The notes under the pieces were generated by a model. The model had not been told where the DNA came from. It searched no databases and saw nothing but the letters and a program-made list of their open reading frames with translations. Below, in pieces: positions 4,908 to 26,450 of a stretch of 31,994 bases of DNA (within the stretch, counting starts at the first letter, position 1; each line of letters starts with the position of its first letter). The translations under genes were made by a program, and so were the position numbers. The DNA is from a virus, in the IMG/VR virus record IMGVR_UViG_3300017952_000058, positions 1 through 31,994 of that record; one strand, 5' to 3'.

Positions 4908-5552
4908 ATGCAGAAAGTTATTAGACCATTTAGCCCCCCAATTTATCTCGGAAAAATCTCAGACAAAGAATTGTCTTTTATTAGATCTATTGTTGATAGA
5001 GCTGGCGAAGAAAAGTTACCACCGACCGCAGGACTAGTAGGAAATATAAGAAATCAGTTTGCTATAGATTTTACAGACCTAGGAGAAAAGGGAAAATTTA
5101 AATCTATTTTTATTCCTCATCTAAGTTATTTTGCCAGTAACTGCAATGTTTTAGACAACAGAGAATTAGTAACAACAGAGTTTGATTTTGTTGATGCTAT
5201 ATGGGTAAATTTTCAACGACAAGGCGAATTTCAACCACTGCATTATCATAGCGGATTTCCAGGGCAGCATGTAGTAATTGTTTGGATACAAGTGCCAAAT
5301 GAACTTGTAGAAGAAAATAAAATTTTGCAAGAGCATAGTATAAAACCTTGCGCCGGAAATATAAGTTTTATAAATGCAGGGCAAGAAACACTTTACAGTG
5401 GTCCTGAATTTGATTTCCTTCCAGAAGAAGGAGATATTGTTGTAATACCTGCAGAACAAAGACATTTAGTTTATCCATTTACAAGTGATGCAACTAGAAT
5501 AAGTTTATCTTTTAATATAAGTTCAATGACAAATAGGAGTCCTGATAGATGA
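4908..5552 (+). CDS. 2OG-Fe(II) oxygenase, H-x-H type
   Basis: This is a 214-aa protein with a double-stranded beta-helix layout of the 2-oxoglutarate/Fe(II) dioxygenase superfamily. The metal-binding motif region is F-Q-P-L-H112-Y-H114-S-G, the H-x-H-x-G variant seen in the phage/marine 2OG-FeII_Oxy_5-like group instead of classical H-x-D. The distal His is H186 (E-Q-R-H-L-V-Y-P-F), and R197 (T-R-I-S-L-S-F-N) is the likely 2OG carboxylate contact. The expected chemistry is hydroxylation or another oxidation coupled to decarboxylation of 2OG to succinate. The substrate is unknown. Its stop overlaps the halogenase start by 4 bases (ATGA), which implies translational coupling and a linked job. 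Confidence 0.85.
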   Translation: MQKVIRPFSPPIYLGKISDKELSFIRSIVDRAGEEKLPPTAGLVGNIRNQFAIDFTDLGEKGKFKSIFIPHLSYFASNCNVLDNRELVTTEFDFVDAIWVNFQRQGEFQPLHYHSGFPGQHVVIVWIQVPNELVEENKILQEHSIKPCAGNISFINAGQETLYSGPEFDFLPEEGDIVVIPAEQRHLVYPFTSDATRISLSFNISSMTNRSPDR

Positions 5553-7066
5553 AAATAGTAATTGTTGGTGGAGGAACAGCTGGTTGGTTATCCGCATTGT
5601 TTGTGAGTAAAATACACGACGACCATTCTGTTACACTGATAGAATCATCTAAAATAGGCATTATAGGTGCAGGAGAAGGTAGTACAGGACATTTGCGTGA
5701 CATTGTTACTAACGGTCTTTATGACTTTGGATGTAATGAACAAGACTTTTTTAAAGAAACTGGAGCCACTGTAAAATTAGGAATAAAACATAAAAACTGG
5801 ACACCAAAAAAAGATTGGAGTTATTATGGTCCTATTGACGGTACTATGACCCCCAATGAAGTTCCGGACTATCATTTTTTACATGCTGTAGCTAACGACA
5901 TTCCTGCACACTTAATTACTCAATTAGGTACTCTTATTGACGACAAAAAATCAACATTCTTAACTGAAAGCTACGGAACAGGCAACCATGCATATCATTT
6001 TGATGCCCACAAAGTAGGGCAATACTTTAAAAAAGTTTGTGGAGACAAGGTTAAAAATATAGATGCAGAAGTATTAGATGTTGTATTAGATCCATTTAAT
6101 GGATATATTACTAAATTAAAATTATCTGATGGACAAGAAATAGAAGGCGATTTCTTTATAGATGCCAGCGGATTTAAAAAAGTTTTAATGGAAAAACTTG
6201 ACAACAAATGGATAAGTTACAATGACAATCTTCCAGTGAATAGTGCTATGCCTTTCTTGCTTCCTTATACAGAAGATGACTATAAAGATTTAGAGCCAGT
6301 AACAACTGCATGGGCATGTGATGCAGGATGGATGTGGCAAATACCTACAGTAGATAGATACGGATGTGGCTATGTGTTTGACGACAGATTTATTACACCG
6401 GAACAAGCGCAAGACGAAATAGAAAACAAATTAGGCAAGAAAATTGAACCTATAAAAATATTAAAATTTGAAAGCGGTAGATTACAAGAACCTTGGAAGA
6501 AAAACTGTTTGGCTGTAGGACTAAGTGCAGCTTTTTCAGAACCACTAGAAGCGACAAGTATCCATGCAACAATTATACAGCTAACGTTTTTTGTGTTTGA
6601 ATATTTGCGATCAACACAGAATCAAACAGTGTCCGACGGAAGTGCGTACATGTACAATAGAAGAGTCAATGGCATGTATGACAACTTTAAAGAGTTTTTA
6701 GAAATACACTACATGGGCGGAAGGACTGATACTGATTTTTGGCGATGGATAAATACAGGTGAAACACAAAGTGATCTTGTGAAATCAGTTATAGAACAGT
6801 GTAAGCACAAAGTTCCAGTAGGTCATGATTTTGCTCAAAACTATGGATATGCAGGTTGGGTACTTTGGGCATTTATTTTAAAAGGTACCGGACACATTAG
6901 TAAAGAACTTGCTGGCTTTGAATTAGACTTCTACGGAAAAAGAAAACACGGCGAAGAGATATTTACACAAAACAATCAGTTATGGACACCCTTGCAACAA
7001 CGCTGTTTGTCTATGGAGGAGTTTGTTAGATCTAGACAAAAGATAAATACTAACGGAGATACATAA
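5549..7066 (+). CDS. Flavin-dependent tryptophan-halogenase family protein
   Basis: This is a 505-aa FAD-dependent halogenase homologue at the family's usual length. Residues 7-13 (GGGTAGW) form the FAD-binding glycine-rich loop; GAGEGST at 40-46 and DASGF at 205-209 are further family signatures. WMWQIP at 261-266 fits the diagnostic W-x-W-x-I-P motif. K80 (V-K-L-G-I-K-H) sits where the catalytic Lys79 of PrnA lies, and EPLEATS at 331-337 corresponds to the conserved E-P-L-E-S/A-T segment. Known family members use FADH2, O2 and halide to make hypohalous acid that chlorinates or brominates an indole. Free tryptophan as substrate is not shown here, and no flavin reductase is visible, so the host would have to supply FADH2. 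It is coupled to the upstream 2OG oxygenase by ATGA overlap. A late-type box lies in its last codons. Confidence 0.9.
   Translation: MKIVIVGGGTAGWLSALFVSKIHDDHSVTLIESSKIGIIGAGEGSTGHLRDIVTNGLYDFGCNEQDFFKETGATVKLGIKHKNWTPKKDWSYYGPIDGTMTPNEVPDYHFLHAVANDIPAHLITQLGTLIDDKKSTFLTESYGTGNHAYHFDAHKVGQYFKKVCGDKVKNIDAEVLDVVLDPFNGYITKLKLSDGQEIEGDFFIDASGFKKVLMEKLDNKWISYNDNLPVNSAMPFLLPYTEDDYKDLEPVTTAWACDAGWMWQIPTVDRYGCGYVFDDRFITPEQAQDEIENKLGKKIEPIKILKFESGRLQEPWKKNCLAVGLSAAFSEPLEATSIHATIIQLTFFVFEYLRSTQNQTVSDGSAYMYNRRVNGMYDNFKEFLEIHYMGGRTDTDFWRWINTGETQSDLVKSVIEQCKHKVPVGHDFAQNYGYAGWVLWAFILKGTGHISKELAGFELDFYGKRKHGEEIFTQNNQLWTPLQQRCLSMEEFVRSRQKINTNGDT
7042..7049 (+). promoter_or_regulatory. T4-type late promoter box GATAAATA
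   Basis: GATAAATAC lies at the 3' end of the halogenase gene, 19 bases before the ATG of the first tail paralogue. It matches the T4 late element TATAAATA and the NATAAATA form described for marine T4-like phages. The same spacing class (16-22 bases to ATG) is seen at gp13, gp19 and the 18960 gene. Confidence 0.55.
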
Positions 7067-7068
7067 AA

Positions 7069-7572
7069 ATGGCGATTAATTTTTCAAACGGTAAAGAGAT
7101 TAGCGAACTAGCTGTTAATAAGCTATATGCTGAAGGTAGTATTTGTCAATGTGTGCAAGTAACAAACTCAGGAAATCACAGTGTTGGAAACAATACTTTG
7201 AAAGATATCTTTAATGCCAGTATAACAACAAGTAGAGCTAGTAACAAAGTTTTAACCTATTTTTATGTAACAGAACGTATGGACTTTGGCGGCAACAGAT
7301 GGTCAATTATGTTTAACTATCTAAGATACGACGGACCTTCAGGAGCTAACCAAAATAACAGTTACTTAGTTGATAGTGGCTGGAATGGAACATACAGATT
7401 TTATCTAGGTGCATACGAAAAATACTATTTACATTCACCAGGCGTAGCCGGAACACATACATATACAGTTCGTTGTCAAAGTTACAATGCAGGTACAGGT
7501 TATGTGAATTATGCCGGCAATCAAGGCGGCGACGGAACTGGTGTAATTAGACTTATGGAGGTCGGTGCTTAA
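7069..7572 (+). CDS. Tail-type structural protein, tandem paralogue 1
   Basis: This is a 167-aa protein and the first of three tandem paralogues. It shares the N-terminal pattern M-A-I-x-F-x-x-G-x-x-I and the C-terminal pattern G-x-D-G-x-x-x-x-R-L-M-E-V with the next two genes. The middle is rich in Tyr, Asn, Gly and Trp with alternating hydrophobics, consistent with a beta-sandwich. Its RBS (GGAG) sits 10 bases before the ATG, and a late-type box lies just upstream. Adjacency to a tail-assembly-chaperone-like gene suggests a fibre-tip or tail appendage subunit. No enzymatic motif is seen. Function is inferred from context only. Confidence 0.7.
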   Translation: MAINFSNGKEISELAVNKLYAEGSICQCVQVTNSGNHSVGNNTLKDIFNASITTSRASNKVLTYFYVTERMDFGGNRWSIMFNYLRYDGPSGANQNNSYLVDSGWNGTYRFYLGAYEKYYLHSPGVAGTHTYTVRCQSYNAGTGYVNYAGNQGGDGTGVIRLMEVGA

Positions 7573-8060
7573 TGGCAATTAATTTTTCAACCGGTCAGCA
7601 AATTACAGGTAACGGTACAAGGATTGCACCTGACGGACATATTATCCAAGTTGTAGAACATGTGCATACCAGTAGATTACAAACTAGTAGCACTAGTGCG
7701 CAAAACTTTTTTTCAGGAGCAATAACACTACAAGATTCAAGCCACGGTGTTGCGTGGTATTATAACTGTGCTCAACGCTGTGATAGAGGAGACGGTCCTT
7801 GGAGTTTAGGATACCATGACATGTACAGAGGTGGATACGGTTCCGGAACACGGATGTTCTACAGTGGATACAATGGATTTACTAGTGATAATATTATAAA
7901 CTTTAGTAAATTTGGTGTTGATTATCCTGGTGTTACTAATCCTGGATATTATGTAAGAGTTTGGGCATATCCCGGAGCAAATGTACAGTTTAACAGCCCT
8001 AACAATCAAGGCAATGACGGTAGAGCTGTGTTAAGATTGATGGAGATTAAGCCTTTGTAG
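7572..8060 (+). CDS. Tail-type structural protein, tandem paralogue 2
   Basis: This is a 162-aa paralogue of the preceding protein. It shares M-A-I-N-F-S at the N-terminus, N-Q-G-N-D-G-R-A-V-L-R-L-M-E-I at the C-terminus, and an aromatic-rich middle (M-Y-R-G-G-Y-G-S-G-T-R-M-F-Y-S-G-Y). The start overlaps the previous stop as TAATG, and its SD (GGAGG) lies within the previous gene's last codons, so translation is probably coupled. It is likely a surface or fibre-associated beta protein. The density of exposed Tyr/Trp-type residues next to a halogenase and oxygenases is suggestive but proves nothing. Confidence 0.7.
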   Translation: MAINFSTGQQITGNGTRIAPDGHIIQVVEHVHTSRLQTSSTSAQNFFSGAITLQDSSHGVAWYYNCAQRCDRGDGPWSLGYHDMYRGGYGSGTRMFYSGYNGFTSDNIINFSKFGVDYPGVTNPGYYVRVWAYPGANVQFNSPNNQGNDGRAVLRLMEIKPL

Positions 8061-8072
8061 GTGGAGTAAAGA

Positions 8073-8567
8073 ATGGCAATAATTTTTACAAATGGATCAC
8101 AAATAGATAGCGCCTACTCAAGTGGTAGTTCAAGTCCAAGAATTAATATGGGCAATGGAAACATTGTTCAAACAACATATACTACTTGGACTGGCAGTAA
8201 CTCAAGCGGCGGCAGCGGATTTGTTGATCTTTTTAACCATAGTATCACTGTACGTCCTGGTAATTTAATTCTTGTTGAATTTTTTATGAAGACAAGAGAA
8301 GATGTCGGACAAGGCAGATGGAATTTAAGCCGTCATAGAGTTACAAACACTACTACAGGAACACAAATTTTCCAAAGTGGATTCCACGGAGGACAATGTA
8401 ACACAATTTATCAGTTCTCTGAACATAAACTACATGACCCAGGGTCGGGTGGAACACATACATTCCAAGCAGCATGTAGTGGTTGGACAGGAACAATGTA
8501 CTTTAACAGATCGGGCGGCAACGGCGACGGACAGGCCTGGCTCAGATTAAGCGAAATAGCAAATTAA
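8073..8567 (+). CDS. Tail-type structural protein, tandem paralogue 3
   Basis: This is a 164-aa third member of the tandem family, starting M-A-I-I-F-T-N-G-S-Q-I and ending G-N-G-D-G-Q-A-W-L-R-L-S-E-I. It is the most diverged of the three, with a Ser/Gly-rich stretch near residues 12-22 and 44-52. The RBS GGAG precedes the ATG by about 8 bases. It is followed 10 bases later by the chaperone-like gene. The triplication may give variants of a receptor-binding subunit or a heterotrimer; the sequence does not decide between these. Confidence 0.7.
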   Translation: MAIIFTNGSQIDSAYSSGSSSPRINMGNGNIVQTTYTTWTGSNSSGGSGFVDLFNHSITVRPGNLILVEFFMKTREDVGQGRWNLSRHRVTNTTTGTQIFQSGFHGGQCNTIYQFSEHKLHDPGSGGTHTFQAACSGWTGTMYFNRSGGNGDGQAWLRLSEIAN

Positions 8568-8577
8568 GGAGACACAA

Positions 8578-9066
8578 ATGTTCGGACAAGCAAGACTTAT
8601 AAATTACTCAACAGCACTAGAAGCACTTGTAGATGAGTGGCGTCTAGCTAACAGCATGAAACACGTTGGTTGGAGTATGAAAGCTGAAAATTCAGACGGA
8701 TATTACAACGGCGAAGAAGTTGATCCTTTAAATGATTGGGACGCTATAGAAATCAATTGGGACGAGGACAACGAAATGACCAAACCTACTCTTGAACAAC
8801 TTGATACAAAAAAAGCAGACCAAATTGCAAAAAAGGATCAAGAAGTTGCAAGAGAAATAAGAGATGAACTTATAAAACAAACAGACTGGATCGTTGCAAA
8901 ATCTACTGAAGAGGGCGTAGAAGTACCAGCAGATTGGAAAGCGTATCGTCAATATCTAAGAGATCTTCCTACACTTGCAGACTGGACACCAACATACAAC
9001 GAAGAAAGATTTGTAATGAATCTAAATGAAATTCGTGTTCCGCCTAATGGTGTTCCTTTAACATAA
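8578..9066 (+). CDS. Phage tail-assembly-chaperone-like protein
   Basis: This is a 162-aa hydrophilic protein. Residues about 76-140 contain R-E-I-R-D-E-L-I-K-Q-T-D-W, then W-K-A-Y-R-Q-Y-L-R-D-L-P and D-W-T-P. This is the R-x-x-R-d-x-L-L-x-x-T/S-D-W ... W-x-x-Y-R-Q-x-L-R-D-(L/I)-P signature of the phage tail-assembly-chaperone family (Pfam Phage_tail_APC as I recall). Such proteins assist fibre folding or assembly and usually sit directly after the fibre genes they serve, as here. The N-terminal half is acidic (D-W-D-A-I-E-I-N-W-D-E-D). The RBS AAGGAG lies just before the ATG. It ends the first structural operon. Confidence 0.8.
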   Translation: MFGQARLINYSTALEALVDEWRLANSMKHVGWSMKAENSDGYYNGEEVDPLNDWDAIEINWDEDNEMTKPTLEQLDTKKADQIAKKDQEVAREIRDELIKQTDWIVAKSTEEGVEVPADWKAYRQYLRDLPTLADWTPTYNEERFVMNLNEIRVPPNGVPLT

Positions 9067-9088
9067 TCACTTATATACAATTTTATAG

Positions 9089-9118
9089 GCTTTGCATGTA
9101 AATATCTACATGCAAAGC
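9089..9118. promoter_or_regulatory. 12-bp perfect inverted repeat with 6-nt loop
   Basis: GCTTTGCATGTA (9089-9100) pairs perfectly with TACATGCAAAGC (9107-9118) around the loop AATATC. It lies between the tail-chaperone-like gene and the next oxygenase. No U-run follows on either strand, so it is not a standard intrinsic terminator. The right arm contains the ATG at 9110, so the hairpin could hide that start codon or act as an RNA processing or protection site. Confidence 0.6.
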
Positions 9119-9679
9119 AATCCTATTGACAGTTATATCTCTGTATATAAAAATTTTTTCCCACAAGATTTTTGTGATAAATGGGTAGATTTTTATTCTA
9201 ATAAAATTTACAGTTCTCATCAATGGCAAGATGACAATGACGCTAAATTTAAAATAAATCAACAAGAGTTTGAAGTTTTATACTTAGATAACTATAAAGA
9301 CAAAGAATTTGTGTCTGTGATAGTAAATAATTTATTTAATTGTATGCAAAATTACGAAAACGATTTGAAAACTAGGTGTTATGTAAGTAAGTTTTCTCCG
9401 TTGAGATTAAACAAGTATTCTGCTAGTACAAAAATGAATAAGCATGTTGATCACATACATGATATATTTAATGGCACCGAAAAAGGCATACCTATTCTTA
9501 GTTTTATAGTAAATTTAAATGATGATTACGAAGGCGGCGAATTAGTATTTTTTGACGATGTAAAAATAAAATTAGACAAAGGAGATGTGGTAATTTTTCC
9601 TGCCAACTTCATGTATCCGCATAGGATTGAACCGATAATTAATAGTACTAGATACAGTTTAGTATGCTGGGGATTTTAG
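9110..9679 (+). CDS. 2OG-Fe(II) oxygenase, prolyl-4-hydroxylase-like, H-x-D type
   Basis: This is a 189-aa DSBH oxygenase. The iron triad is H112-V-D114 (N-K-H-V-D-H) with distal H171 (M-Y-P-H-R-I-E-P), and R181 (T-R-Y-S-L-V-C-W) is the likely 2OG contact. The core I-V-N-L-N-D-D-Y-E-G-G-E-L places it in the same subgroup as the 11116 and 18397 proteins. I chose the ATG at 9110. A TTG at 9092 is in frame but has no better SD, and both lie in a 12-bp hairpin. It opens a run of tightly overlapped genes to 15149. The substrate is unknown; this subgroup is prolyl-hydroxylase-like in fold only. Confidence 0.85.
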   Translation: MQSNPIDSYISVYKNFFPQDFCDKWVDFYSNKIYSSHQWQDDNDAKFKINQQEFEVLYLDNYKDKEFVSVIVNNLFNCMQNYENDLKTRCYVSKFSPLRLNKYSASTKMNKHVDHIHDIFNGTEKGIPILSFIVNLNDDYEGGELVFFDDVKIKLDKGDVVIFPANFMYPHRIEPIINSTRYSLVCWGF

Positions 9680-9687
9680 GAGAATTT

Positions 9688-9936
9688 ATGTCAAAGATTA
9701 TAGATCAATATAAGTCACACTTTTTGCACTTTAAAAAAACAGGCGAAATTTACAACAATACTGTTGCTGCATTTTTAGAAAACAATTTTGCAGTATTAAT
9801 TGATACTCCTGACGGAGCAGTGTTTGAAGCTATTCCAACAGTTCAAGGATGGCTTAAAGAAAATTTAGACCCAGACATATGGGGCAGTAGAGAAAAAGTT
9901 GAAGCATATCAATACTACAAAGGTATAGGTAGATAA
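9688..9936 (+). CDS. Small conserved-looking hypothetical protein (82 aa)
   Basis: This is an 82-aa soluble protein with no recognised domain. It has an amphipathic N-terminal helix (S-K-I-I-D-Q-Y-K-S-H-F-L-H-F), a beta-like A-V-L-I-D-T-P-D-G-A-V-F-E-A-I and a C-terminal helix with Trp-rich segments. The ATG at 9688 is chosen over an upstream in-frame ATG at 9664 because AGGAG sits 5 bases before 9688. It lies between two 2OG oxygenases and its stop overlaps the next start (TAATG), which argues for a real, co-translated gene. It might be a small partner of the oxygenases. No function can be assigned. Confidence 0.65.
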   Translation: MSKIIDQYKSHFLHFKKTGEIYNNTVAAFLENNFAVLIDTPDGAVFEAIPTVQGWLKENLDPDIWGSREKVEAYQYYKGIGR

Positions 9937-10529
9937 TGGGCGTAGAAGCTATTTTCCCACAAGTATTGTATAAAACCAAAATTAGAGATTATAAAAAATA
10001 CAATGCACAAATTGAAAATAGATTGAAATTCATTAAGAATGAAGTGCCACCTGGCGGCGCCAATTGGATAGGCTATGTTTATAACACCTGCGGAACTTTT
10101 GAAATACATACAGACCCTGAATTAAAAGAACTTAGTAATCTAATAACAAAACATGTAAATTGGTTTGCAGCAGATTTAGGTGTTGTAAGCGGATTTCGAT
10201 ATGTTCCTGAACAAAGTTGGGCAAACATTTATAATCAAGACGGTTATCAAGAATTTCATTATCACGGAGGATTTAGTTTTAGTGCAGTATATTATGCAAA
10301 AACAACCGAAAACACGCAAATTATATTTGAAAATCCTGTACAAGATATGATTCCGTTGCCAACATCGATGAATACACAATTAACATCAACAATGAAGACC
10401 TATAGACCCGAAGCAGGCGATTTAATAATTTTCCGCAGTCATTTGAGACATAGTGTTCCGCCACATAAAGATAAAGATGAAAGAATTACTCTTGCATTTA
10501 ACTACAAAGAGGAAAAAATAAATGAGTGA
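9936..10529 (+). CDS. 2OG-Fe(II) oxygenase, Oxy_5-like, H-x-H type
   Basis: This is a 197-aa protein with the 2OG-FeII_Oxy_5-type arrangement. S-W-A-N-I-Y precedes F-H108-Y-H110-G-G, then a Y-Y-A-K strand, I-I-F-E-N-P, and P-E-A-G-D-L-I-I-F. The distal His is in R-H172-S-V-P-P-H, and R183 (E-R-I-T-L-A-F-N-Y) is the likely 2OG-binding residue. The start overlaps the previous stop by one base, and the end overlaps the next gene by 8 bases. The substrate is unknown. Proteins of this type are common host-like genes in marine T4-like phages, with no settled role. Confidence 0.88.
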   Translation: MGVEAIFPQVLYKTKIRDYKKYNAQIENRLKFIKNEVPPGGANWIGYVYNTCGTFEIHTDPELKELSNLITKHVNWFAADLGVVSGFRYVPEQSWANIYNQDGYQEFHYHGGFSFSAVYYAKTTENTQIIFENPVQDMIPLPTSMNTQLTSTMKTYRPEAGDLIIFRSHLRHSVPPHKDKDERITLAFNYKEEKINE

Positions 10530-11115
10530 AGTTTATAAAGTACCTAATCCTGTACAAAGACTATTTCCTAACACTATGATTTTAGATTATATTGACGTTG
10601 ATACTAAAACACTAGAAGATTTAGTATGGTGGGCAAAAGCAAATAATTTTGAAAATGTAGGTCATAATCCTTTGTATAGCACACGTTTAGGAGATCAACT
10701 CATACCACCTAAACCTATCTGGGAATACCAACAAGCTCCTGGTATAGATAAAATAATGAACGAAGTTCAACACTATGCTGATATGTGGATAAAAGAACAA
10801 TTAAGTAGCGACAATTACACAGCTCAGCCTGAAATAAGTTGGATAGTAAGTTATGACGAGGGCGGCATGCAATGGCCGCACATACACAAAGAATATAACT
10901 GGACAGCTATCATTGGTTTAAGAAATAACGGAACTCTGTTAATAGAAGATCCTAGACATTTAGCAGTAGGAACAGGACAAACAAATCAAATGTTTTACAA
11001 AGAGGTAATAATTAATCCAGGACAAATATGTATTACTCCTGGTTATCTTGCTCATCTTAGTGTTCCGTGTTATCATAAAGATGGTAGAGACATTTTAGTA
11101 ATTAACGGAAAATAA
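10522..11115 (+). CDS. 2OG-Fe(II) oxygenase-like protein, H-x-H type
   Basis: This is a 197-aa DSBH protein. W-I-V-S-Y-D-E-G-G-M-Q-W-P precedes H120-I-H122-K-E. The distal motif is L-A-H178-L-S-V-P, and R189 (D-G-R-D-I-L-V-I-N) ends the core. The strand I-I-G-L-R-N-N-G-T-L-L-I-E-D-P matches the Oxy_5-type central sheet. It diverges in sequence from the preceding gene, so it is not a recent duplicate. SD AAGAGG lies about 10 bases before its ATG inside the previous gene. It is followed immediately (no gap) by the degenerate family member at 11116. Confidence 0.8.
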   Translation: MSEVYKVPNPVQRLFPNTMILDYIDVDTKTLEDLVWWAKANNFENVGHNPLYSTRLGDQLIPPKPIWEYQQAPGIDKIMNEVQHYADMWIKEQLSSDNYTAQPEISWIVSYDEGGMQWPHIHKEYNWTAIIGLRNNGTLLIEDPRHLAVGTGQTNQMFYKEVIINPGQICITPGYLAHLSVPCYHKDGRDILVINGK

Positions 11116-12783: not shown

Positions 12784-13346
12784 TAGAACAAAACCTTTTT
12801 AGAAACTTGATATACAAAGATACTTTTGAATTTGATCTACAAAAGTTACTTCCTACGATGAAACAAAGTCTTTTTCAAGACGGAGTTCCGTCAGCGGATA
12901 ATTATGAAACAACACCTGCAGGAGCAACACCGCATCATTGGCCAGAATTCCATGAATTTCTTGTTTGGGCGGCAGAAAGAGCAGAAAAAATTGCCGAAGA
13001 TTGGGAATTGCTACCATTAGAAAAATATATTGCAAGTAGTCATGTCAATAGGCAAGTTCAAGGGCAGTATGTTAGAGAACATTCGCATCCCGGTGTTGAT
13101 ATTGTTATAGTTGCATACATAAGTGCAGAAGAAAATAGCGGGAACATAGAATTTAGAGATCCCTTAGAATATGCCTGGCAAAATCTTCCTAAAGACACAC
13201 ATCCGAGAGATGTATGGAGAGAAGTAAAAATAAAAACAGGTGATGTTTTATTTTTTCCTGGATTTTTAAATCATAGAACTCAAATTAATACAAGCGGTAA
13301 AGACAGATGGACACTAAACACAATGATCAGATCCAGAATAGGATAG
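12780..13346 (+). CDS. 2OG-Fe(II) oxygenase, Oxy_5-like, H-x-H type
   Basis: This is a 188-aa protein with the clearest Oxy_5 pattern in the island. V-R-E-H101-S-H103-P-G-V-D is followed by V-A-Y-I-S-A and S-G-N-I-E-F-R-D-P. Then come K-T-G-D-V-L-F-F-P-G-F-L, distal N-H165-R-T-Q and R176 (D-R-W-T-L-N-T). In related families this layout matches 2OG/Fe(II)-dependent hydroxylases with the second H of H-x-H in the usual Asp position. It starts by ATGA overlap. Its last 40 bases overlap the predicted start of the methyltransferase, a longer overlap than anywhere else in this run. Confidence 0.88.
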   Translation: MIEQNLFRNLIYKDTFEFDLQKLLPTMKQSLFQDGVPSADNYETTPAGATPHHWPEFHEFLVWAAERAEKIAEDWELLPLEKYIASSHVNRQVQGQYVREHSHPGVDIVIVAYISAEENSGNIEFRDPLEYAWQNLPKDTHPRDVWREVKIKTGDVLFFPGFLNHRTQINTSGKDRWTLNTMIRSRIG

Positions 13347-13951
13347 ATTATATAGACATAGAAGCCTGGAATAATTTTTATATAAAACACCCTCAAGGCG
13401 GTCCTTGGGATACTGTTGATTTTTCGCCAGACGAACATGTTGTAGATTTTATAAATTATTTTGATATTAAAACAGGAAAAGTTTTAGATGCAGGTTGTGC
13501 AGACGGCCGAAATTCAAAATACTTATTAGAGCAAGGACTAGACGTAACAGGTATAGACATTTCTGAAGAAGTAATTACTAGAACACAAAAACGTTTTCCT
13601 AACGGAACTTTTATTGTTAAAAACATAGCAGAATTAGATTTTAACAAGGAGTTTGATGCTGTAATTGATGCTGGAGCATTGCATGTAAATCATCCAAAAG
13701 TTTATAGAACAGTTTTTGAAAATTATTATAATGCACTAAAAGAAAATGGAAAATTGTTTATTAGATTATTCTATCATGAAAAACCAGAAAAGATATTTGG
13801 AGTACGTCCTAGCATGCCTGTTTATGGGTTGCATGATCGAGATATTAATAAATTAATTGAAGGCTTGTTTGTTGTTAAAAACAGTGAATATGATCCTATG
13901 TACGGTGCTCATATGAGCGGATGTAATTTTTTGCATATGGAGAAAATATGA
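13307..13951 (+). CDS. Class I SAM-dependent methyltransferase
   Basis: This is a 214-aa Rossmann-fold methyltransferase. Motif I is V-L-D-A-G-C-A-D-G (residues 59-67), followed by G-I-D-I-S with acidic D84 at the end of strand 2, and D-A-V-I-D-A-G-A-L-H around 117-126 as motif IV. It would transfer a methyl group from SAM to an unknown O, N, S or C acceptor. The only in-frame ATG near the N-terminus is at 13307, inside the upstream oxygenase gene, with a weak SD; the start is less certain than the domain. It overlaps the next oxygenase by 4 bases. It is the only non-2OG enzyme in this run, which suggests a shared tailoring pathway. Confidence 0.85.
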   Translation: MDTKHNDQIQNRIDYIDIEAWNNFYIKHPQGGPWDTVDFSPDEHVVDFINYFDIKTGKVLDAGCADGRNSKYLLEQGLDVTGIDISEEVITRTQKRFPNGTFIVKNIAELDFNKEFDAVIDAGALHVNHPKVYRTVFENYYNALKENGKLFIRLFYHEKPEKIFGVRPSMPVYGLHDRDINKLIEGLFVVKNSEYDPMYGAHMSGCNFLHMEKI

Positions 13952-14553
13952 AACTTATAGAGAAAAATAAAGAATGGAAATATCACATTTATCAACTAGA
14001 AACGATTACCGAAGATAATCTTAATGAATGGATGTTTCAGTGCGAAAAAGCAATAGCAAAAATACAAATGTTTTTAAGAGCAGAACAGCAAGGTCAAGAT
14101 ACTACTTTTTATTATTCTAGATATAATATTTGGACAGTTACTCCAGGTAATAAAATGTTCTTTGAGCTATACAAAGAACTCCTAGAATGTATTAAAGACT
14201 TTTGTAAAACTAATGAAGTTACACACGATAAAGGCTTATATTTGCAAAGCTGGTTTAACAATCATAGAAGCGATAACAACCTTGAAAGACATAATCATTT
14301 TAGTCCTATACACGGTTATATTGCTGTAAATCCTCAACACAGCAAAACAGTGTTTTATGAGCAAATGGGGCAAGACGATGTTGCATTTACTATTAATAAC
14401 AAGTTAGGTCAGTTATATATTGGTCCCGGAAACTTAGAACATGAAGTTATAACTACAAAAGAGTACGATGGTCCTAGGTATTCAATTGGATTTGATATCG
14501 ATGACAACGAAGAGACTCATCACTTGAGCATGATACCATTGGTAATAGAATGA
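13948..14553 (+). CDS. 2OG-Fe(II) oxygenase-like, H-x-H type, tandem copy A
   Basis: This is a 201-aa protein with E-R-H115-N-H117-F-S-P-I-H-G-Y, distal L-E-H165-E-V and R177 (P-R-Y-S-I-G-F-D-I). It is clearly paralogous to the next gene: both have D-T-T-x-F/Y-Y-x-R-Y-N, L-x-x-Q-S-W, R-H-N-H-x-S-P-x-H-G-Y, and end L-x-M-I-P-L-V-I. The H-x-H replaces the classical H-x-D. It joins the methyltransferase upstream and its twin downstream through ATGA overlaps, indicating tight co-expression. The substrate is unknown; the pair may act on two related sites or as a heterodimer (inference). Confidence 0.82.
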   Translation: MKLIEKNKEWKYHIYQLETITEDNLNEWMFQCEKAIAKIQMFLRAEQQGQDTTFYYSRYNIWTVTPGNKMFFELYKELLECIKDFCKTNEVTHDKGLYLQSWFNNHRSDNNLERHNHFSPIHGYIAVNPQHSKTVFYEQMGQDDVAFTINNKLGQLYIGPGNLEHEVITTKEYDGPRYSIGFDIDDNEETHHLSMIPLVIE

Positions 14554-15149
14554 AAATAGTAGAAACTAACGATAAACTTTTGTATAATTTATACGAGATA
14601 GAATATATTGCAGAGCAGCAAGAAGAAATAGTTAAAGACTGTTTTACTGCTGTTAAAAAAATAAATGACTTTGTAGAAGCAGAAACAAACAACAAAGATA
14701 CAACTTGGTTTTATACAAGGTATAATGTTTTTTCAATTATGCCAGGAAACATACACTTCTTTAAAATTTTCAAAGAACTTCAACTATGTGCAAAACATTA
14801 TTTTGAACATTATAAAATACAATTTGACGAGCAACTTTGGATACAAAGTTGGTTAAATCATCATACTCATGATACAGTGCTTTCTCGACATAACCACTGG
14901 AGCCCTGTACATGGGTACTTGTCTATAAATCCACAAAATACCGAAACAGTTTTTTATCATAACGATTTTGATACTACAGAAATGTTTGCTGTGCAAAACC
15001 GTCCAGGACTAGTTTATTTAGGTCCAGGAAAACGGGAACACAGTGTTAGGAATCTAACAAACTATGATGGAACTAGATTTACTATAGGATTTGATATAGA
15101 CGATATGGATACAACGGAACACTTAGGTATGATTCCTTTAGTAATTTAG
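14550..15149 (+). CDS. 2OG-Fe(II) oxygenase-like, H-x-H type, tandem copy B
   Basis: This is a 199-aa twin of the previous protein, with S-R-H114-N-H116-W-S-P-V-H-G-Y, distal R-E-H164-S-V and R176 (T-R-F-T-I-G-F-D-I). The extra His-rich stretch L-N-H-H-T-H-D (about 102-108) is not in copy A (F-N-N-H-R-S-D). Both copies keep all expected metal and 2OG residues, so neither looks decayed. It ends the overlapped run; its stop is directly followed by a consensus sigma-70-type promoter for the next gene. Confidence 0.82.
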   Translation: MKIVETNDKLLYNLYEIEYIAEQQEEIVKDCFTAVKKINDFVEAETNNKDTTWFYTRYNVFSIMPGNIHFFKIFKELQLCAKHYFEHYKIQFDEQLWIQSWLNHHTHDTVLSRHNHWSPVHGYLSINPQNTETVFYHNDFDTTEMFAVQNRPGLVYLGPGKREHSVRNLTNYDGTRFTIGFDIDDMDTTEHLGMIPLVI

Positions 15150-15150
15150 C

Positions 15151-15179
15151 TTGACAACTGCTATATTACCGTGTATAAT
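15151..15179 (+). promoter_or_regulatory. Perfect sigma-70-type promoter
   Basis: TTGACA at 15151-15156 and TATAAT at 15174-15179 are both exact consensus hexamers with exactly 17 bases between them. It lies in a 47-base gap, just after one oxygenase gene stops and upstream of the AAGGAG-ATG of the next. Host RNA polymerase should read it without phage late factors, so the downstream genes may be expressed early. Confidence 0.85.
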
Positions 15180-15196
15180 AAGGAAAAGGAGTTAAA

Positions 15197-15853
15197 ATGC
15201 AAAGCACAATGATACCACTTTCACAATTAAAACAGTCATATCCTGATTATTGTAGTAGCAATATTTTTGTTTATGATGATGTATTTCCCGCCTGGCAGGT
15301 TGCAGATCATGCAAGACAATTACAACTTATACAATGGGAATACGGTCATATGACCGATGCCACTAAGTTGGGAGAATACGATAGATTTTTTGGACGTCAG
15401 CTATTCCATCTTGCACAAAATCATTCAGAAAATATGCCTCCTGTAGTAACAAATATTGCAGCAGCTATAGAAGGAGCCCTTTGTCATAATATTGATAAAG
15501 ACGGTGAATTTAGAGGAATTTACAGAGTTAGTTTAAACGGCCAAACAAAAGGTATGCGGCCAGGGCCACATGTTGATACAGTTGAAAAAAATTATCACTG
15601 GACGGCTGTTTATTTTGCAAATGAAGCTGATGGTGATCTTCAATTTTATGACAATATTAAAGATTTAAACCCTACAGATTGTGTGGATTTTAAACTTGGA
15701 CGTATTGTAATATTTCCAAGCGGCTATGCACACGAAGCTCTTGCTCCAACTACACCTTGGCGTGTAAGTATTGGTATAATGTTTGAACACAAAACAGACA
15801 GACAATATAAAATTTTAAAAGAAGAAGATTTGCAAGATGCTGAAAGTGATTGA
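15197..15853 (+). CDS. 2OG-Fe(II) oxygenase, H-x-D type, first gene after sigma-70 promoter
   Basis: This is a 218-aa oxygenase with G-P-H125-V-D127-T-V, distal A-H179-E-A-L-A-P and R189 (W-R-V-S-I-G-I). The N-terminal I-F-V-Y-D-D-V-F-P-A-W and central Y-H-W-T-A-V-Y-F blocks mark it as a paralogue of the 12172 protein, but it is longer, with an extra charged C-terminus (Y-K-I-L-K-E-E-D-L-Q-D). A strong SD AAGGAG precedes the ATG and an exact-consensus promoter lies upstream. It overlaps the next gene by 17 bases. It is the best placed of the oxygenases for high, early expression. Confidence 0.87.
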   Translation: MQSTMIPLSQLKQSYPDYCSSNIFVYDDVFPAWQVADHARQLQLIQWEYGHMTDATKLGEYDRFFGRQLFHLAQNHSENMPPVVTNIAAAIEGALCHNIDKDGEFRGIYRVSLNGQTKGMRPGPHVDTVEKNYHWTAVYFANEADGDLQFYDNIKDLNPTDCVDFKLGRIVIFPSGYAHEALAPTTPWRVSIGIMFEHKTDRQYKILKEEDLQDAESD

Positions 15854-16382
15854 TGATATCTTTGACGAAGAATCTCTCGAACAAATAGACGGATTATTTA
15901 ACGGACTTTCAAACAGTGCGGTTTGGACTACTAATGGTGGGCTATTTCCTTCTTACATAAATCAAAATCCTGGATGTGTTTTAGTACATATGCTAGGACA
16001 AATTTATACAGATGAAATTGTAAAATATTTTATTGAACAAGATATCTTTACTAGAACACCATCTTTTGCTGACGGATTTCTGTATATAGGATATCCTGGC
16101 AGTAGTTTAAGTTGGCATCAAGATGGACATAATGATTTTGGCGGTAAGCGCACAGCAATTAGTGTATATTTAAATAAAGAATGGAAAGATCATTGGGGAG
16201 GTTGGTTTAGTTATCAAGACAACGACGAAATTAAATCTATTATTCCTAAGTATAATAGAGCAGTAATCATGTATGAAGACTACAATCATTGTACTACTGT
16301 AATTGCAAACGAAGCAGATAGACGTTTCAGTTTTCAATTATTTTTTGAAAAAGACGCACTCAACTTAAATTACGGTAAATGA
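15837..16382 (+). CDS. 2OG-Fe(II) oxygenase, H-x-D type
   Basis: This is a 181-aa P4H-like DSBH protein. The N-terminal L-K-V-I-D-D-I-F-D-E-E-S-L is a typical family opening. The triad is W-H94-Q-D96-G-H, with distal Y-N-H151-C-T-T-V, and R163 (D-R-R-F-S-F-Q-L-F) is the expected 2OG contact. The central V-Y-L-N-K-E-W and G-G-W-F-S-Y resemble the L-N-x-x-W ... G-G-x-L strand pair of hydroxylases. The start at 15837 overlaps the previous gene by 17 bases and has an AAGAAG-like SD. The substrate is unknown. Confidence 0.87.
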   Translation: MLKVIDDIFDEESLEQIDGLFNGLSNSAVWTTNGGLFPSYINQNPGCVLVHMLGQIYTDEIVKYFIEQDIFTRTPSFADGFLYIGYPGSSLSWHQDGHNDFGGKRTAISVYLNKEWKDHWGGWFSYQDNDEIKSIIPKYNRAVIMYEDYNHCTTVIANEADRRFSFQLFFEKDALNLNYGK

Positions 16383-16385
16383 TAT

Positions 16386-17111
16386 ATGCCCAATCTTGTA
16401 TTTGAAAAAGTTTTTAGAGGTAATTTAGTTTGTGATAATCAGGATTTTTATAACCAAAAACCTGTTCCGGCAAAACGTTTTTTACCTGATTGGATTAAAA
16501 ATATAGACAATAAAAACAAAACGTCTATTAAAAAGTGTCCTCCTGTAATTGACTATTTAATAAGTGGATACTGCATTCTATCTCCTGCAACTTATCACTT
16601 TAAAAGAGAAGTTATTAATGGAGAAGAAGAAATATCTGTTGATGGCGATATTTTTATGACACTTGATATGAGCGAAGTTGAAGGAGCACCTGCCTGGACA
16701 GAAATACAAACAATTAGTAAGCACGAATTTCATCAAGCACCTTTAGAAATTAACGGTATTAGAAAAAGTATATTTAAAATTTATACCTACTGGCTTATTA
16801 AACCCCCAGAAGGATATTCCTTAGCATATGTACCTTTAAATTTACATTTTTTACCTTTTGAAATTTTACCTGCTATAGTAGATGCTGATGATAAGTGGTT
16901 AGCACCGCCCAGTTTCCCGGCTATGTGTAGTTTTAATGATAACGGAACTTATGAATGGACTATAAATGCAGGTGATCCTATTGCAAAAGTTATTCCTATA
17001 AAAAGAGAAGAATGGTCAAGTAGTACAGAAAATAATTTAGATAAAGAATACTATGAAGGACACGAGCACGGTGAATACAAAGACTGGCATGTGAAAAAGA
17101 AGTATGACTGA
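16386..17111 (+). CDS. Unknown protein, K-x-C-P family, copy 1
   Basis: This is a 241-aa soluble protein that I do not recognise with confidence. It shares a layout with the next two genes: an N-terminal F-L-P-D-W-I-K, then K-K-C-P-P-V-I-D-Y-L (about 49-59), G-Y-x-I-x-S-P, a middle F-K-I-Y-T-Y-W-L-I, and P-P-S-F-P-A ahead of Y-E-W-T-I-N-A-G-D-P-I-A-K-V-I-P-I near the C-terminus. It ends in a charged tail (H-E-H-G-E-Y-K-D-W-H). From memory the K-x-C-P plus G-D-P-I-A layout recalls domains of unknown function found near oxygenases in marine phages and bacteria, possibly DUF6065, but I cannot check this. No metal triad or nucleotide-binding motif is seen. It overlaps the next gene by 8 bases. 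Confidence 0.65.
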   Translation: MPNLVFEKVFRGNLVCDNQDFYNQKPVPAKRFLPDWIKNIDNKNKTSIKKCPPVIDYLISGYCILSPATYHFKREVINGEEEISVDGDIFMTLDMSEVEGAPAWTEIQTISKHEFHQAPLEINGIRKSIFKIYTYWLIKPPEGYSLAYVPLNLHFLPFEILPAIVDADDKWLAPPSFPAMCSFNDNGTYEWTINAGDPIAKVIPIKREEWSSSTENNLDKEYYEGHEHGEYKDWHVKKKYD

Positions 17112-17733
17112 TATTAATGTTTCTCCTGTGTTTCCTATAAAGTATATGGAAAATTATTGTAGTCCGCCTCAACATGCTAAGAAAAATATTCCAACATGGT
17201 TTAAAGACATTAATACAAGTGTAAAAAATATAAAAAATTGTCCGCCAGTAACAAACTTTTTAACTGAAGGATTTTATATTCCGAGTCCGGGAAATTTTAA
17301 ATTTTTAAGATATGTTGTTGGTAAAGAAGAACACATTGACATATCCGGTGATTTGGTTGTAAATATACAAGAAGGAAATAATAGTTTTTCAACACCTACT
17401 ATGAGCGATCAGACATATGATCAAATACCTTTAGTGAAAAATGGTATAAAGAAAAGTATTTTTAAGTTCCATTATTTTTGGACAATTGACGCTAAAAACA
17501 AAAGCATTTTATACATTCCTACACAAATGCAAATGCAGTGCTTTTCTATATTTCCAGCTATAATTGATTCTTGGAACACGCCTCCAAGTTTCCCTGCATA
17601 TTGTAATTTTGACGATAAACATACATACGAATGGGAAATAAAGAAAGGCGAACCTATAGCATACGGTATTCCTATTGAAAGGAACCATATAAAAATAAAT
17701 TTACAGGACTTTAAAGGACCAGACAATGACTAA
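17104..17733 (+). CDS. Unknown protein, K-x-C-P family, copy 2
   Basis: This is a 209-aa paralogue of the previous protein. Shared blocks are I-P-T-W-F-K-D-I, K-N-C-P-P-V-T-N-F-L, G-F-Y-I-P-S-P-G, I-K-K-S-I-F-K-F-H-Y-F-W-T-I, I-F-P-A-I-I-D, P-P-S-F-P-A-Y-C-N-F, and Y-E-W-E-I-K-K-G-E-P-I-A-Y-G-I-P-I-E-R. It lacks the long charged tail of copy 1. The mean hydropathy looks soluble with no signal peptide. Overlaps of 8 bases on both sides make a three-gene set. Function unknown. Confidence 0.65.
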   Translation: MTDINVSPVFPIKYMENYCSPPQHAKKNIPTWFKDINTSVKNIKNCPPVTNFLTEGFYIPSPGNFKFLRYVVGKEEHIDISGDLVVNIQEGNNSFSTPTMSDQTYDQIPLVKNGIKKSIFKFHYFWTIDAKNKSILYIPTQMQMQCFSIFPAIIDSWNTPPSFPAYCNFDDKHTYEWEIKKGEPIAYGIPIERNHIKINLQDFKGPDND

Positions 17734-18406
17734 AATTAAATGGTGTATATATAAAAGCAATCCAATGAACGATGCCTGGAAAGATCTAGGATTCTTTGCA
17801 CCTGAACCAATTGACGCCTTTAAAAACAGAAAAGGTACATACAAAGCCTGCCCTGCATTCAAACAAAGTGTTAATGATTATTATGCAATCAAATCTCCTG
17901 TAGATTTTACTATAGAATGGAGCGAAGATCAAGAGCATCTTACAATTTTAGGTGCTCCTGGGCTAGTTCAAGAAAGAGTTTATGATCAAGGAAAAGACGA
18001 TCCTCGTCTTGTAACACTTTTATTTCAATATATTTTTTATGCTGAAAAGGATGTTAATGCAGAAGTCTTTACACCGTTCTTTTCTGAAGAGCCGCTGTCT
18101 TGGCATGTTCTACCGGGAAGATACAATGTAGGTGCATGGGTCAGACCTATAGATGTAACGATAGAACTTAAAACTAAAAAAGGCAAGATGAAAGTGAAAC
18201 GCGGTGATGTATTAATGTATGTTAAATTTACCAGCGAAAAACTTGATGATAAGTTTGATTTAGAACAAGTAGAATTTAATGAAAAGATTTGGCAACAATC
18301 TATGGCTTGCACTAGTTTTAAAGATCAAATAAAATATCTTAGTTTGCAAGAGATGTATAAAGTTTTTAAGAAAAGCATAGTAAGTAAAATGCACAAATGG
18401 TTTTAG
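17726..18406 (+). CDS. Unknown protein, diverged K-x-C-P family, copy 3
   Basis: This is a 226-aa protein that keeps the outline of the two preceding ones. It has Y-K-A-C-P-A-F-K-Q-S, Y-Y-A-I-K-S-P-V-D-F, and K-R-G-D-V-L-M-Y-V-K-F where the others have G-D/E-P-I-A, but the rest has diverged. It lacks the P-P-S-F-P-A block. The C-terminus is basic and helical (Y-K-V-F-K-K-S-I-V-S-K-M-H-K-W-F). It overlaps the previous gene by 8 bases and the next oxygenase by 10. Membership in the same family is an inference from motif order, not from overall identity. Confidence 0.6.
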   Translation: MTKIKWCIYKSNPMNDAWKDLGFFAPEPIDAFKNRKGTYKACPAFKQSVNDYYAIKSPVDFTIEWSEDQEHLTILGAPGLVQERVYDQGKDDPRLVTLLFQYIFYAEKDVNAEVFTPFFSEEPLSWHVLPGRYNVGAWVRPIDVTIELKTKKGKMKVKRGDVLMYVKFTSEKLDDKFDLEQVEFNEKIWQQSMACTSFKDQIKYLSLQEMYKVFKKSIVSKMHKWF

Positions 18407-18924
18407 AAGATTATATAAAAATATTTGAGTTTGAAGACGACTTATATTCTGAATGCCTAAAGCTCAAACACAATTTAATACCTTCATTGACAGGCAATGG
18501 GCTAACAACTCATCGCACTTGCAGTGAGTTTTATCTACATCCAGGTAACGAAGAACATACTGACCAAGAATTATATAAGCGCATTGAAAAAATAGTTTTT
18601 GACGCTGTAGAAAAATACAAAAAAGATATACCAGATGCTGGTAAATCTATACACGGAAGTCATTCAGGATTTCACATATTGAGATATCAACAAAGTCAAG
18701 AGTTTGATACACACATCGATGACTTTGCTAACGCTTTTAGAAGAATAAGTATTACACTTAATTTAAATGATTGCTACGAAGGTGGTGATTTTGTAATAAA
18801 CAACAAAACTTTTAAATTAAAGCGTAATCAAATACTGATATTTCCTAGTAATTTTGTATTTCCACACAAAGTTACTCCTGTTTCTAGTGGAGAACGCTGG
18901 TCCATCGTAACTTGGATTATATAA
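18397..18924 (+). CDS. 2OG-Fe(II) oxygenase, prolyl-4-hydroxylase-like, H-x-D type
   Basis: This is a 175-aa oxygenase with a complete active site. H106-I-D108 is in F-D-T-H-I-D-D-F, distal H157 is in V-F-P-H-K-V-T-P, and R167 is in G-E-R-W-S-I-V. The core L-N-L-N-D-C-Y-E-G-G-D-F and L-I-F-P-S-N-F-V-F match the 9110 and 11116 proteins. It is the best intact reference for showing that 11116 has lost its residues, since the two align without gaps over the catalytic half. It is the last gene of the sigma-70-driven group. The 35 bases after it hold a hairpin and a late box. Confidence 0.87.
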   Translation: MVLEDYIKIFEFEDDLYSECLKLKHNLIPSLTGNGLTTHRTCSEFYLHPGNEEHTDQELYKRIEKIVFDAVEKYKKDIPDAGKSIHGSHSGFHILRYQQSQEFDTHIDDFANAFRRISITLNLNDCYEGGDFVINNKTFKLKRNQILIFPSNFVFPHKVTPVSSGERWSIVTWII

Positions 18925-23372: not shown

Positions 23373-23373
23373 A

Positions 23374-23805: not shown

Positions 23806-23818
23806 ATAGTTAATTATC

Positions 23819-26424: not shown

Positions 26425-26429
26425 ACACA

Positions 26430-26450
26430 TATTTATCGATACGATAAATA
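26430..26450. promoter_or_regulatory. Divergent back-to-back late promoter (symmetric TATTTATCG/CGATAAATA)
   Basis: TATTTATCG (26430-26438) and CGATAAATA (26442-26450) are perfect inverted copies separated by ATA. Each strand therefore carries GATAAATA, the late-box form, pointing at gp13 (+) and at gp14 (-). The + box ends 16 bases before the gp13 ATG, with GGAG between. The - box ends only 5 bases before the gp14 ATG at 26424. Confidence 0.65.

What the first reader, a model, noticed from the sequence alone, without database searches (positions are those of the whole stretch)
4908..18924. Thirteen 2OG-oxygenase-fold genes in one phage island
Starts at 4908, 9110, 9936, 10522, 11116, 11625, 12172, 12780, 13948, 14550, 15197, 15837 and 18397 all encode DSBH-type proteins. 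Six carry H-x-D (9110, 11625, 12172, 15197, 15837, 18397), six carry H-x-H (4908, 9936, 10522, 12780, 13948, 14550), and one has neither. Single or few such genes are common in marine T4-like phages; an array this dense, overlapped and joined with a halogenase and a methyltransferase is striking. Because several distinct subgroups are present, not just copies of one gene, I infer a multi-step modification of a shared polymer or protein rather than simple gene dosage.
Basis: partly seen in the sequence, partly recalled or inferred. Interest (0 to 1): 0.78.

Follow-up and report, generated by a model that had tools for sequence, protein, structure and literature searches.

The report
Tail-fibre-linked oxygenase and halogenase cassette
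A phage carries thirteen different oxygenase-type genes, a halogenase and a methyltransferase packed among its tail-fibre genes, an arrangement kept in order in distant relatives, which suggests (but does not yet prove) that the phage chemically decorates the tips it uses to grab its host.

Summary
All 13 ORFs exist at the stated starts, and the motif tally (six HxD, six HxH, one neither) is exactly right. Profile searches support the 2OG-oxygenase fold for at least twelve; g11625 rests mainly on its motif. The array sits between tail-fibre genes and includes a tryptophan-type halogenase, three paralogous small 'tip' proteins, a tail-chaperone-like protein, a methyltransferase and three unknown proteins. 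It is not an assembly artefact. Three diverged contigs keep most of it in nearly the same order, gene by gene (11/11 reciprocal best hits with one). Paralogues are mostly under 35% identical, so gene dosage is excluded. One member, g11116, is a confidently predicted oxygenase fold without metal ligands, and two relatives lack them too: a conserved pseudo-oxygenase. The parts are not new: fibre-halogenase-oxygenase runs already lie unremarked in cyanophages Syn9, P-TIM40, S-RIM44 and S-WAM1, and many 2OG genes per phage is published. The window is not a Kyanoviridae phage; its sheath and neck are closest to jumbo phages. Best reading: a cassette that hydroxylates, halogenates and methylates tail-fibre tip proteins. 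Catalysis is likely; the substrate is inferred from location only.

The parts
19..3465 (+). long tail fibre protein
   Evidence: phrog_9851 tail fiber E 5e-77
3482..3805 (+). small fibre-linked protein
   Evidence: phrog_11338 tail fiber E 3e-11; kept in L056, L058, L060, L071
3816..4874 (+). fibre-region protein (C-terminal 'RWRNIYTNDLQLSNGIGDYTIVEGEEDLF' module)
   Evidence: no family hit; kept in L056, L058, L059, L060, L071
4908..5552 (+). 2OG-fold, HxH (HYH), PF13759
   Evidence: PF13759 E 5e-12, phrog_81 E 3e-23
5549..7066 (+). flavin-dependent tryptophan-type halogenase
   Evidence: PF04820 311 bits; PDB halogenases to E 3e-61 incl. VirX1 E 3e-43; GGGTAGW and WMWQIP conserved with L009
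7069..7572 (+). tip paralogue 1 (candidate substrate)
   Evidence: paralogous to 7572 and 8073 (27-32% id); 65% to its own L009 counterpart
7572..8060 (+). tip paralogue 2 (candidate substrate)
   Evidence: 74% to its own L009 counterpart
8073..8567 (+). tip paralogue 3 (candidate substrate)
   Evidence: 62% to its own L009 counterpart
8578..9066 (+). tail fibre assembly / tail assembly chaperone-like protein
   Evidence: PF16778 Phage_tail_APC over cut-off; phrog_4912 E 6e-14
9110..9679 (+). 2OG-fold, HxD, prolyl-hydroxylase-like
   Evidence: PF13640 E 6e-14; phrog_61 E 4e-33
9664..9936 (+). small conserved protein of unknown function
   Evidence: kept at the same place in L056, L058, L071
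9936..10529 (+). 2OG-fold, HxH, PF13759
   Evidence: PF13759 E 1e-18; phrog_81 E 4e-41
10522..11115 (+). 2OG-fold, HxH (HIH)
   Evidence: phrog_81 E 7e-6, Pfam sub-threshold; kept in L056, L058, L071
11116..11628 (+). pseudo-oxygenase: DSBH fold without HxD or distal His
   Evidence: PF13640 27.9 bits vs cut-off 27; model pLDDT 85.4, best PDB matches vCPH and PHD2; ligands also lost in L056 and L058
11625..12179 (+). 2OG-fold (motif-based), HxD...H
   Evidence: phrog_2954 E 6e-30; H87/D89/H140 invariant in 4 homologues; hhalign to P4H group E 1.7e-4
12172..12783 (+). 2OG-fold, HxD
   Evidence: PF13640 27.1 bits; phrog_274 E 7e-25
12780..13346 (+). 2OG-fold, HxH
   Evidence: PF13759 E 1e-11
13307..13951 (+). 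SAM-dependent methyltransferase
   Evidence: PF13649 E 1e-17; kept in L056 and L071
13948..14553 (+). 2OG-fold, HxH (HNH)
   Evidence: phrog_2696 E 1e-35, phrog_81 E 8e-10
14550..15149 (+). 2OG-fold, HxH (HNH); 45% to 13948
   Evidence: phrog_2696 E 2e-39
15151..15179 (+). perfect sigma-70 promoter consensus TTGACA-N17-TATAAT
   Evidence: same syntenic place in L056 at 18389-18417
15197..15853 (+). 2OG-fold, HxD; 35% to 12172
   Evidence: phrog_274 E 9e-24
15837..16382 (+). 2OG-fold, HxD
   Evidence: PF13640 E 1e-10
16386..17111 (+). UFAM unknown protein (phrog_7084)
   Evidence: beta-rich low-confidence model, dUTPase-like matches
17104..17733 (+). UFAM unknown protein (phrog_7084)
   Evidence: 39% to 16386
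17726..18406 (+). UFAM unknown protein (phrog_17480)
   Evidence: 57% to its L009 orthologue
18397..18924 (+). 2OG-fold, HxD, prolyl-hydroxylase-like
   Evidence: PF13640 E 1e-17; phrog_61 E 5e-29
18960..20246 (+). fibre / baseplate-linked protein
   Evidence: phrog_9729 tail fiber E 1e-9

Best explanation
A tail-fibre tailoring cassette. Twelve probably active 2OG-fold oxygenases of several subfamilies, one flavin-dependent halogenase and one methyltransferase oxidise, halogenate and methylate side chains of the phage's own fibre and tip proteins before or during assembly. The three small tip paralogues next to the halogenase are the likeliest substrates. A conserved catalytically dead oxygenase (g11116) probably acts as an adaptor or scaffold. 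Shown here: fold and motif homology, conserved order, catalytic-residue conservation, the loss of ligands in g11116, and physical linkage to fibre, tip and chaperone genes in several phage lineages. Inferred: enzymatic activity, a protein substrate, the tip as target, and the adaptor role.
For: Motifs are kept in every orthologue pair except g11116, so catalysis appears to be under selection. Eleven of 11 L056 array genes are reciprocal best hits in the same order. The cassette lies inside the fibre region: fibre genes on both sides and a tail-assembly-chaperone-like protein. The same layout (fibre, small tip paralogues, chaperone-like gene, one or two halogenases, mostly UFAM, overlapping 2OG run) occurs in Syn9, P-TIM40, S-RIM44 and S-WAM1; in S-RIM44, P-TIM40 and S-WAM1 the tips are two or three glycine-rich paralogues. 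Halogenase and tips are the most conserved parts between the window and L009 (62-74%, against 39-58% for the oxygenases), and L059 keeps halogenase, tips and chaperone without any 2OG gene. The HxD group's nearest solved relatives by profile include PHD2 protein prolyl hydroxylase, and the g11116 model is closest to viral collagen prolyl hydroxylase vCPH and PHD2.
Against: No substrate, activity or modified residue has been observed. No collagen-like repeats exist in the window's fibre proteins, so the classical prolyl-hydroxylase substrate is absent. In P-SSM2 and HTVC008M many 2OG genes lie away from fibres, near replication, terminase and neck genes. VirX1, to which Syn9 gp42 is essentially identical, was reported to iodinate diverse substrates (title cited in PMC10452541; the paper itself is not held). 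A consensus sigma-70 promoter inside the array suggests that part of it may be expressed early, before fibres are made.
Confidence: 0.5

Rival explanations
1. Auxiliary host metabolism: the oxygenases draw down or use 2-oxoglutarate or hydroxylate small metabolites or lipids, reprogramming host nitrogen or energy metabolism.
For: This is the published proposal for cyanophage 2OG genes (PMC3037559; PMC9602691). One member matches PhyH weakly. Many phages scatter such genes through the genome.
Against: Consuming 2OG would need one good enzyme, not 12 divergent lines each kept as an orthologue. The PhyH match is below its cut-off. Linkage here is to fibre genes.
Confidence: 0.18
2. Modification of a host or phage-made glycan or lipid at the cell surface, for receptor recognition or superinfection exclusion, with tips as readers rather than substrates.
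For: Location next to adhesion genes; methyltransferase and oxygenases could act on sugars or lipids.
Against: No glycosyltransferase, sugar-nucleotide or transport gene was identified in the array.
Confidence: 0.12
3. A phage-encoded natural-product or RiPP-like pathway making an oxidised, halogenated small molecule or peptide.
For: Halogenase, methyltransferase and serial oxygenases resemble tailoring sets of natural-product clusters (general knowledge); the 90-aa protein at 9664 is conserved in the array.
Against: No NRPS, PKS, leader-type precursor, export or self-resistance gene seen; 9664 is conserved along most of its length, unlike a leader/core precursor.
Confidence: 0.08
4. DNA or nucleotide repair or hypermodification (AlkB/TET-like, or a 'DNA endonuclease V' role as annotated).
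For: Published suggestion for phage 2OG genes near uvs genes (PMC9146016, PMC3037559); phrog_274 is named DNA endonuclease V.
Against: No member passes the PF13532 (AlkB-like) cut-off. Two cyanophage 'DNA endonuclease V' proteins pass the PF13640 oxygenase cut-off and none of three matches a DNA-repair family. No DNA-metabolism gene lies in the array.
Confidence: 0.06
5. Non-catalytic structural jelly-roll proteins of the virion.
For: g11116 has lost its metal ligands; location among fibre genes.
Against: Twelve of 13 keep ligands, and do so across diverged phages. The virion proteome of S-SZBM1, which encodes nine 2OG genes, is described as 24 structural proteins, one cytidylyltransferase and five unknowns, no 2OG named; the S-SCSM1 text read here names none among its virion proteins of predicted function either.
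Confidence: 0.05

Closest known systems
Fibre-adjacent halogenase/2OG run of Synechococcus phage Syn9 (gp34-gp60); also P-TIM40, S-RIM44, S-WAM1
   Same: Fibre, small tip paralogues or fibre proteins, chaperone-like gene, halogenase(s), UFAM (not in S-WAM1), then an overlapping 2OG run
   Different: 4-8 oxygenases instead of 13; tips are glycine-rich and unrelated in sequence; no methyltransferase of this family found there; different phage family (Kyanoviridae)
2OG-Fe(II) oxygenase expansion of cyanophages (S-SCSM1 with 24; P-SSM2, S-SSM7, HTVC008M about 20 each)
   Same: Many divergent 2OG genes of the same PHROG families in one phage (PMC9602691)
   Different: Scattered or in smaller runs there; here one fibre-embedded cassette with conserved gene order
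VirX1-type viral flavin halogenase (PDB 6qgm)
   Same: Halogenase homologous (E 3e-43); Syn9 gp42, essentially identical to VirX1, sits in the corresponding module
   Different: Window halogenase is a diverged line; its substrate is untested
Viral collagen prolyl 4-hydroxylase vCPH (PBCV-1) and PHD2
   Same: Closest solved folds to the HxD/P4H-like subgroup
   Different: No collagen-like repeats in the window's fibres; the modelled member itself lacks the metal ligands
PF13759 proteins 2rg4 and 3bvc
   Same: The HxH subgroup matches them at E 3e-21; HxH...H...R is invariant in 14 members of this subgroup
   Different: Those entries are described only as uncharacterized proteins

Membership tests
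2OG-Fe(II) oxygenase superfamily (DSBH) | Family profile or fold match | tested here: met
   8 over Pfam cut-off, 4 more by PHROG, 1 (11625) by motif plus weak profile-profile match; g11116 model matches DSBH enzymes at TM about 0.7
2OG-Fe(II) oxygenase superfamily (DSBH) | Canonical HxD/E...H metal triad | tested here: inconclusive
   Met in 6, replaced by invariant HxH...H in 6 (PF13759-type), absent in g11116
2OG-Fe(II) oxygenase superfamily (DSBH) | 2OG- and Fe-dependent turnover | not testable with these tools
   needs purified protein
Flavin-dependent tryptophan halogenase (PF04820) | Profile match and GxGxxG / WxWxIP motifs | tested here: met
   311 bits vs cut-off 21; GGGTAGW and WMWQIP present and conserved
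Collagen-type prolyl 4-hydroxylase with collagen-like fibre | Collagen-like Gly-X-Y repeats in a linked fibre protein | tested here: not met
   no (Gxx)4+ run in any window protein tested; present only in L059, which lacks the oxygenases
AlkB-like DNA repair dioxygenase | PF13532 over its cut-off | tested here: not met
   best 18.2 bits vs 31.2
Kyanoviridae / T4-like cyanophage | Structural genes closest to that family | tested here: not met
   sheath best to Atu_ph07 and Phosso (42%) and PA5oct-like phages; neck best to Phosso (47%) and PA5oct group
Adhesin/tip proteins (7069, 7572, 8073) | Homology to a known receptor-binding or tip family | tested here: inconclusive
   no PHROG hit and no Pfam hit over cut-off; tip assignment rests on position and the analogous cyanophage arrangement

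The most novel reading that the evidence does not exclude
Phages assemble a many-enzyme oxidative maturation line, RiPP-like in logic, that rewrites their own receptor-binding tips with hydroxyl, halogen and methyl groups, organised around a conserved pseudo-oxygenase, so that host recognition depends on chemistry that is not directly encoded in the tip gene.
Probability: 0.25. Interest if true: 0.9.

Novelty: new variant of a known kind. Interest (0 to 1): 0.6.

Why it matters
[quoted passage not shown] A conserved cassette tied to fibre, tip and chaperone genes turns that open question into a concrete, testable claim about one set of virion proteins, and gives a genomic context for viral halogenases such as VirX1. 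If true, phage tips would carry post-translational chemistry invisible to sequence-based host-range prediction.

Tried and rejected
UFAM proteins as extra DSBH oxygenases: the model is beta-rich but matches dUTPases, at low confidence (mean pLDDT 64.6), so not counted. Profile comparison of g11625 with alignment A2 (E 1e-24) discarded because A2 contains g11625 itself. Close DNA relatives among isolated phages: none. Collagen-like substrate in the window: none. Cellular source of the halogenase: only 27-34% identical halogenases in proteobacterial genomes; their neighbourhoods were not examined. Small-molecule and DNA-repair labels in PHROGs (ferrochelatase, DNA endonuclease V) judged misnomers. 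Two related-loci queries with the UFAM family gave nothing new. PMC library searches for phage fibre modification by 2OG enzymes found no description of such a module; the library lacks most subscription papers, and I did not have the original Syn9 genome paper.
Full report
OBSERVATION. The window is a whole IMG/VR contig of 31,994 bases. The 13 ORFs lie on the + strand at the stated starts. From 9110 onward the genes mostly overlap or abut; the longest gap is 47 bases. Pfam gives 2OG-oxygenase domains over cut-off for eight of them (4908, 9110, 9936, 11116, 12172, 12780, 15837, 18397). PHROGs connect four more (10522, 13948, 14550, 15197) to the phage 2OG families phrog_81, phrog_2696 and phrog_274. 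The 13th, 11625, has no Pfam hit over cut-off: it rests on phrog_2954, on H87/D89/H140 being invariant in four homologues and on a weak profile-profile match with the HxD columns aligned. The HxH group matches solved proteins 2rg4 and 3bvc at E 3e-21, and HxH...H...R is invariant in 14 members, so HxH is a subfamily trait and not damage.

SURROUNDINGS. The array is embedded in tail-fibre genes. Upstream are a 1148-aa fibre (19-3465) and two smaller fibre-region proteins, then oxygenase 4908, a tryptophan-type halogenase (5549, PF04820 311 bits), three mutually paralogous 162-167-aa proteins (7069, 7572, 8073; 'tips' by position) and a tail-assembly-chaperone-like protein (8578, PF16778). The 2OG run with a methyltransferase (13307) and three UFAM proteins (16386, 17104, 17726; phrog_7084/17480; UFAM is my own label) follows, then another fibre-linked protein (18960), a subtilase and a gp10-like connector. 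The sheath and neck proteins are closest to jumbo phages (Agrobacterium phage Atu_ph07, Sinorhizobium phage Phosso, Pseudomonas PA5oct group), so the phage is not a Kyanoviridae cyanophage.

CONSERVATION. Near-identical copies occur in contigs 3300022935_000162, 3300022937_000127, 3300018424_000411 and 3300018428_003595, which argues against an assembly artefact. Three diverged contigs keep the cassette. 3300033182_000579 (L009/L056) has 11 oxygenases, the methyltransferase, halogenase, three tips, chaperone and one UFAM in the same order at 38-74% identity. 3300010885_039077 (L071) has 13 oxygenases in a slightly rearranged order. 3300021142_000292 (L058) has nine before the contig ends. Reciprocal best hits are 11 of 11 for L056, 11 for L071 and 8 for L058. 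Paralogues inside the window are mostly below 35% identical. This excludes recent copying or gene dosage and supports distinct, separately inherited roles.

PSEUDO-OXYGENASE. g11116 lacks HxD, the distal His and the Arg, and so does its L056 orthologue; the L058 protein at the same place lacks HxD and the distal His but keeps Arg (the L058 protein scores equally to g18397, so its orthology rests on position). L071 lacks the gene. The AlphaFold2 model of g11116 is confident (pLDDT 85.4, pTM 0.83) and its best solved matches are viral collagen prolyl hydroxylase vCPH and PHD2. So a 2OG-fold protein without metal ligands appears to be kept at a fixed place. An adaptor role is my inference.

HOW COMMON. 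With the same three profiles (phrog_81, phrog_274, PF13640) I counted hits in 22 records. The window has 10 in 14 kb (13 real). P-SSM2 and S-SSM7 have 23 per genome, HTVC008M 20, S-WAM1 17; the densest 14-kb stretch in any of the 15 reference phage records is 8 (Syn9) (one hit list was truncated at weak E-values, so the counts are lower bounds). Syn9, P-TIM40, S-RIM44 and S-WAM1 all show fibre, small tip-like or fibre genes, chaperone-like gene, one or two halogenases and an overlapping 2OG run, with UFAM in the first three. In S-RIM44, P-TIM40 and S-WAM1 the genes before the chaperone-like gene include two or three glycine-rich paralogues, homologous across these phages and Syn9. Syn9 gp42 in this run is essentially identical to VirX1, the solved viral halogenase (1271 bits over the full length). 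UFAM genes in the isolates lie within about 0.4 kb of a 2OG gene in four of five cases, where chance would give about 0.07-0.19 each. The arrangement therefore recurs; the window and L071 are its largest examples found here. L059 keeps halogenase, tips and chaperone without any 2OG gene, so the halogenase-tip-chaperone core is separable from the oxygenases.

MECHANISM. Most likely (0.5) the cassette modifies the phage's own fibre and tip proteins. For: linkage to fibre, tip and chaperone genes in several lineages; strong conservation of halogenase and tips; conserved catalytic residues in 12 members; nearest solved folds of the HxD subgroup being protein prolyl hydroxylases; and the published virion protein descriptions of S-SZBM1 and S-SCSM1 not naming 2OG proteins although those phages encode 9 and 24, which fits enzymes rather than structural parts. 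Against: no modified residue is known, there is no collagen-like substrate, and in other phages many 2OG genes lie elsewhere. Published alternatives are 2OG/nitrogen signalling and DNA repair (PMC3037559, PMC9146016); neither readily explains a set of divergent, individually conserved oxygenases inside a fibre region.

REGULATION. A perfect sigma-70 consensus promoter lies at 15151-15179, just upstream of 15197; the diverged relative L056 has one at the same syntenic place (about 0.03-0.1 expected by chance). This suggests a second transcription unit (15197 to 18924 and beyond) read by host-type RNA polymerase, which may be expressed earlier than the fibres. A consensus match is not proof of a promoter.

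LIMITS. Substrate, activity and timing are not shown. The tip identity of 7069/7572/8073 rests on position. The g11625 fold rests on its motif. The literature search covers open-licence PMC papers only.

Noticed in passing
window 15151-15179 and 27233-27261; L056 18389-18417: Perfect sigma-70 promoters TTGACA-N17-TATAAT; two in the window where 0.1 are expected, the first conserved in position in a diverged relative.
   Followed up: partly
window 16386-18406: Three tandem UFAM proteins (phrog_7084/17480), also in cyanophage 2OG runs and haloarchaeal tailed viruses; low-confidence model matches trimeric dUTPases.
   Followed up: partly
PHROG families phrog_274, phrog_2954, phrog_3531; P-SSM2 PSSM2_163 and S-RIM12 RW010310_022: Labels 'DNA endonuclease V' and 'ferrochelatase' look wrong: two cyanophage 'DNA endonuclease V' proteins pass the PF13640 oxygenase cut-off, and window members of the 'ferrochelatase' families carry the HxD...H motif.
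   Followed up: partly
L059 3787-5319: Fibre-region protein with long collagen-like Gly-X-Y repeats near halogenase, three tips and chaperone, but no 2OG gene nearby.
   Followed up: no
L065 and L060: Contigs with four and three halogenase genes respectively mixed with UFAM and 2OG genes.
   Followed up: no
window 23010-26466 (- strand): Reverse-strand block with a cysteine-dioxygenase-like protein (phrog_7851), a nudix hydrolase, and sheath-stabiliser-like and virion structural genes between the fibre and sheath regions.
   Followed up: no
window 20243-21856: S8 subtilase gene in the tail region directly after the fibre genes (PF00082, phrog_9158).
   Followed up: no
window 28230-31580: Long 1116-aa tail sheath protein, closest to jumbo phages Atu_ph07 and Phosso.
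   Followed up: partly
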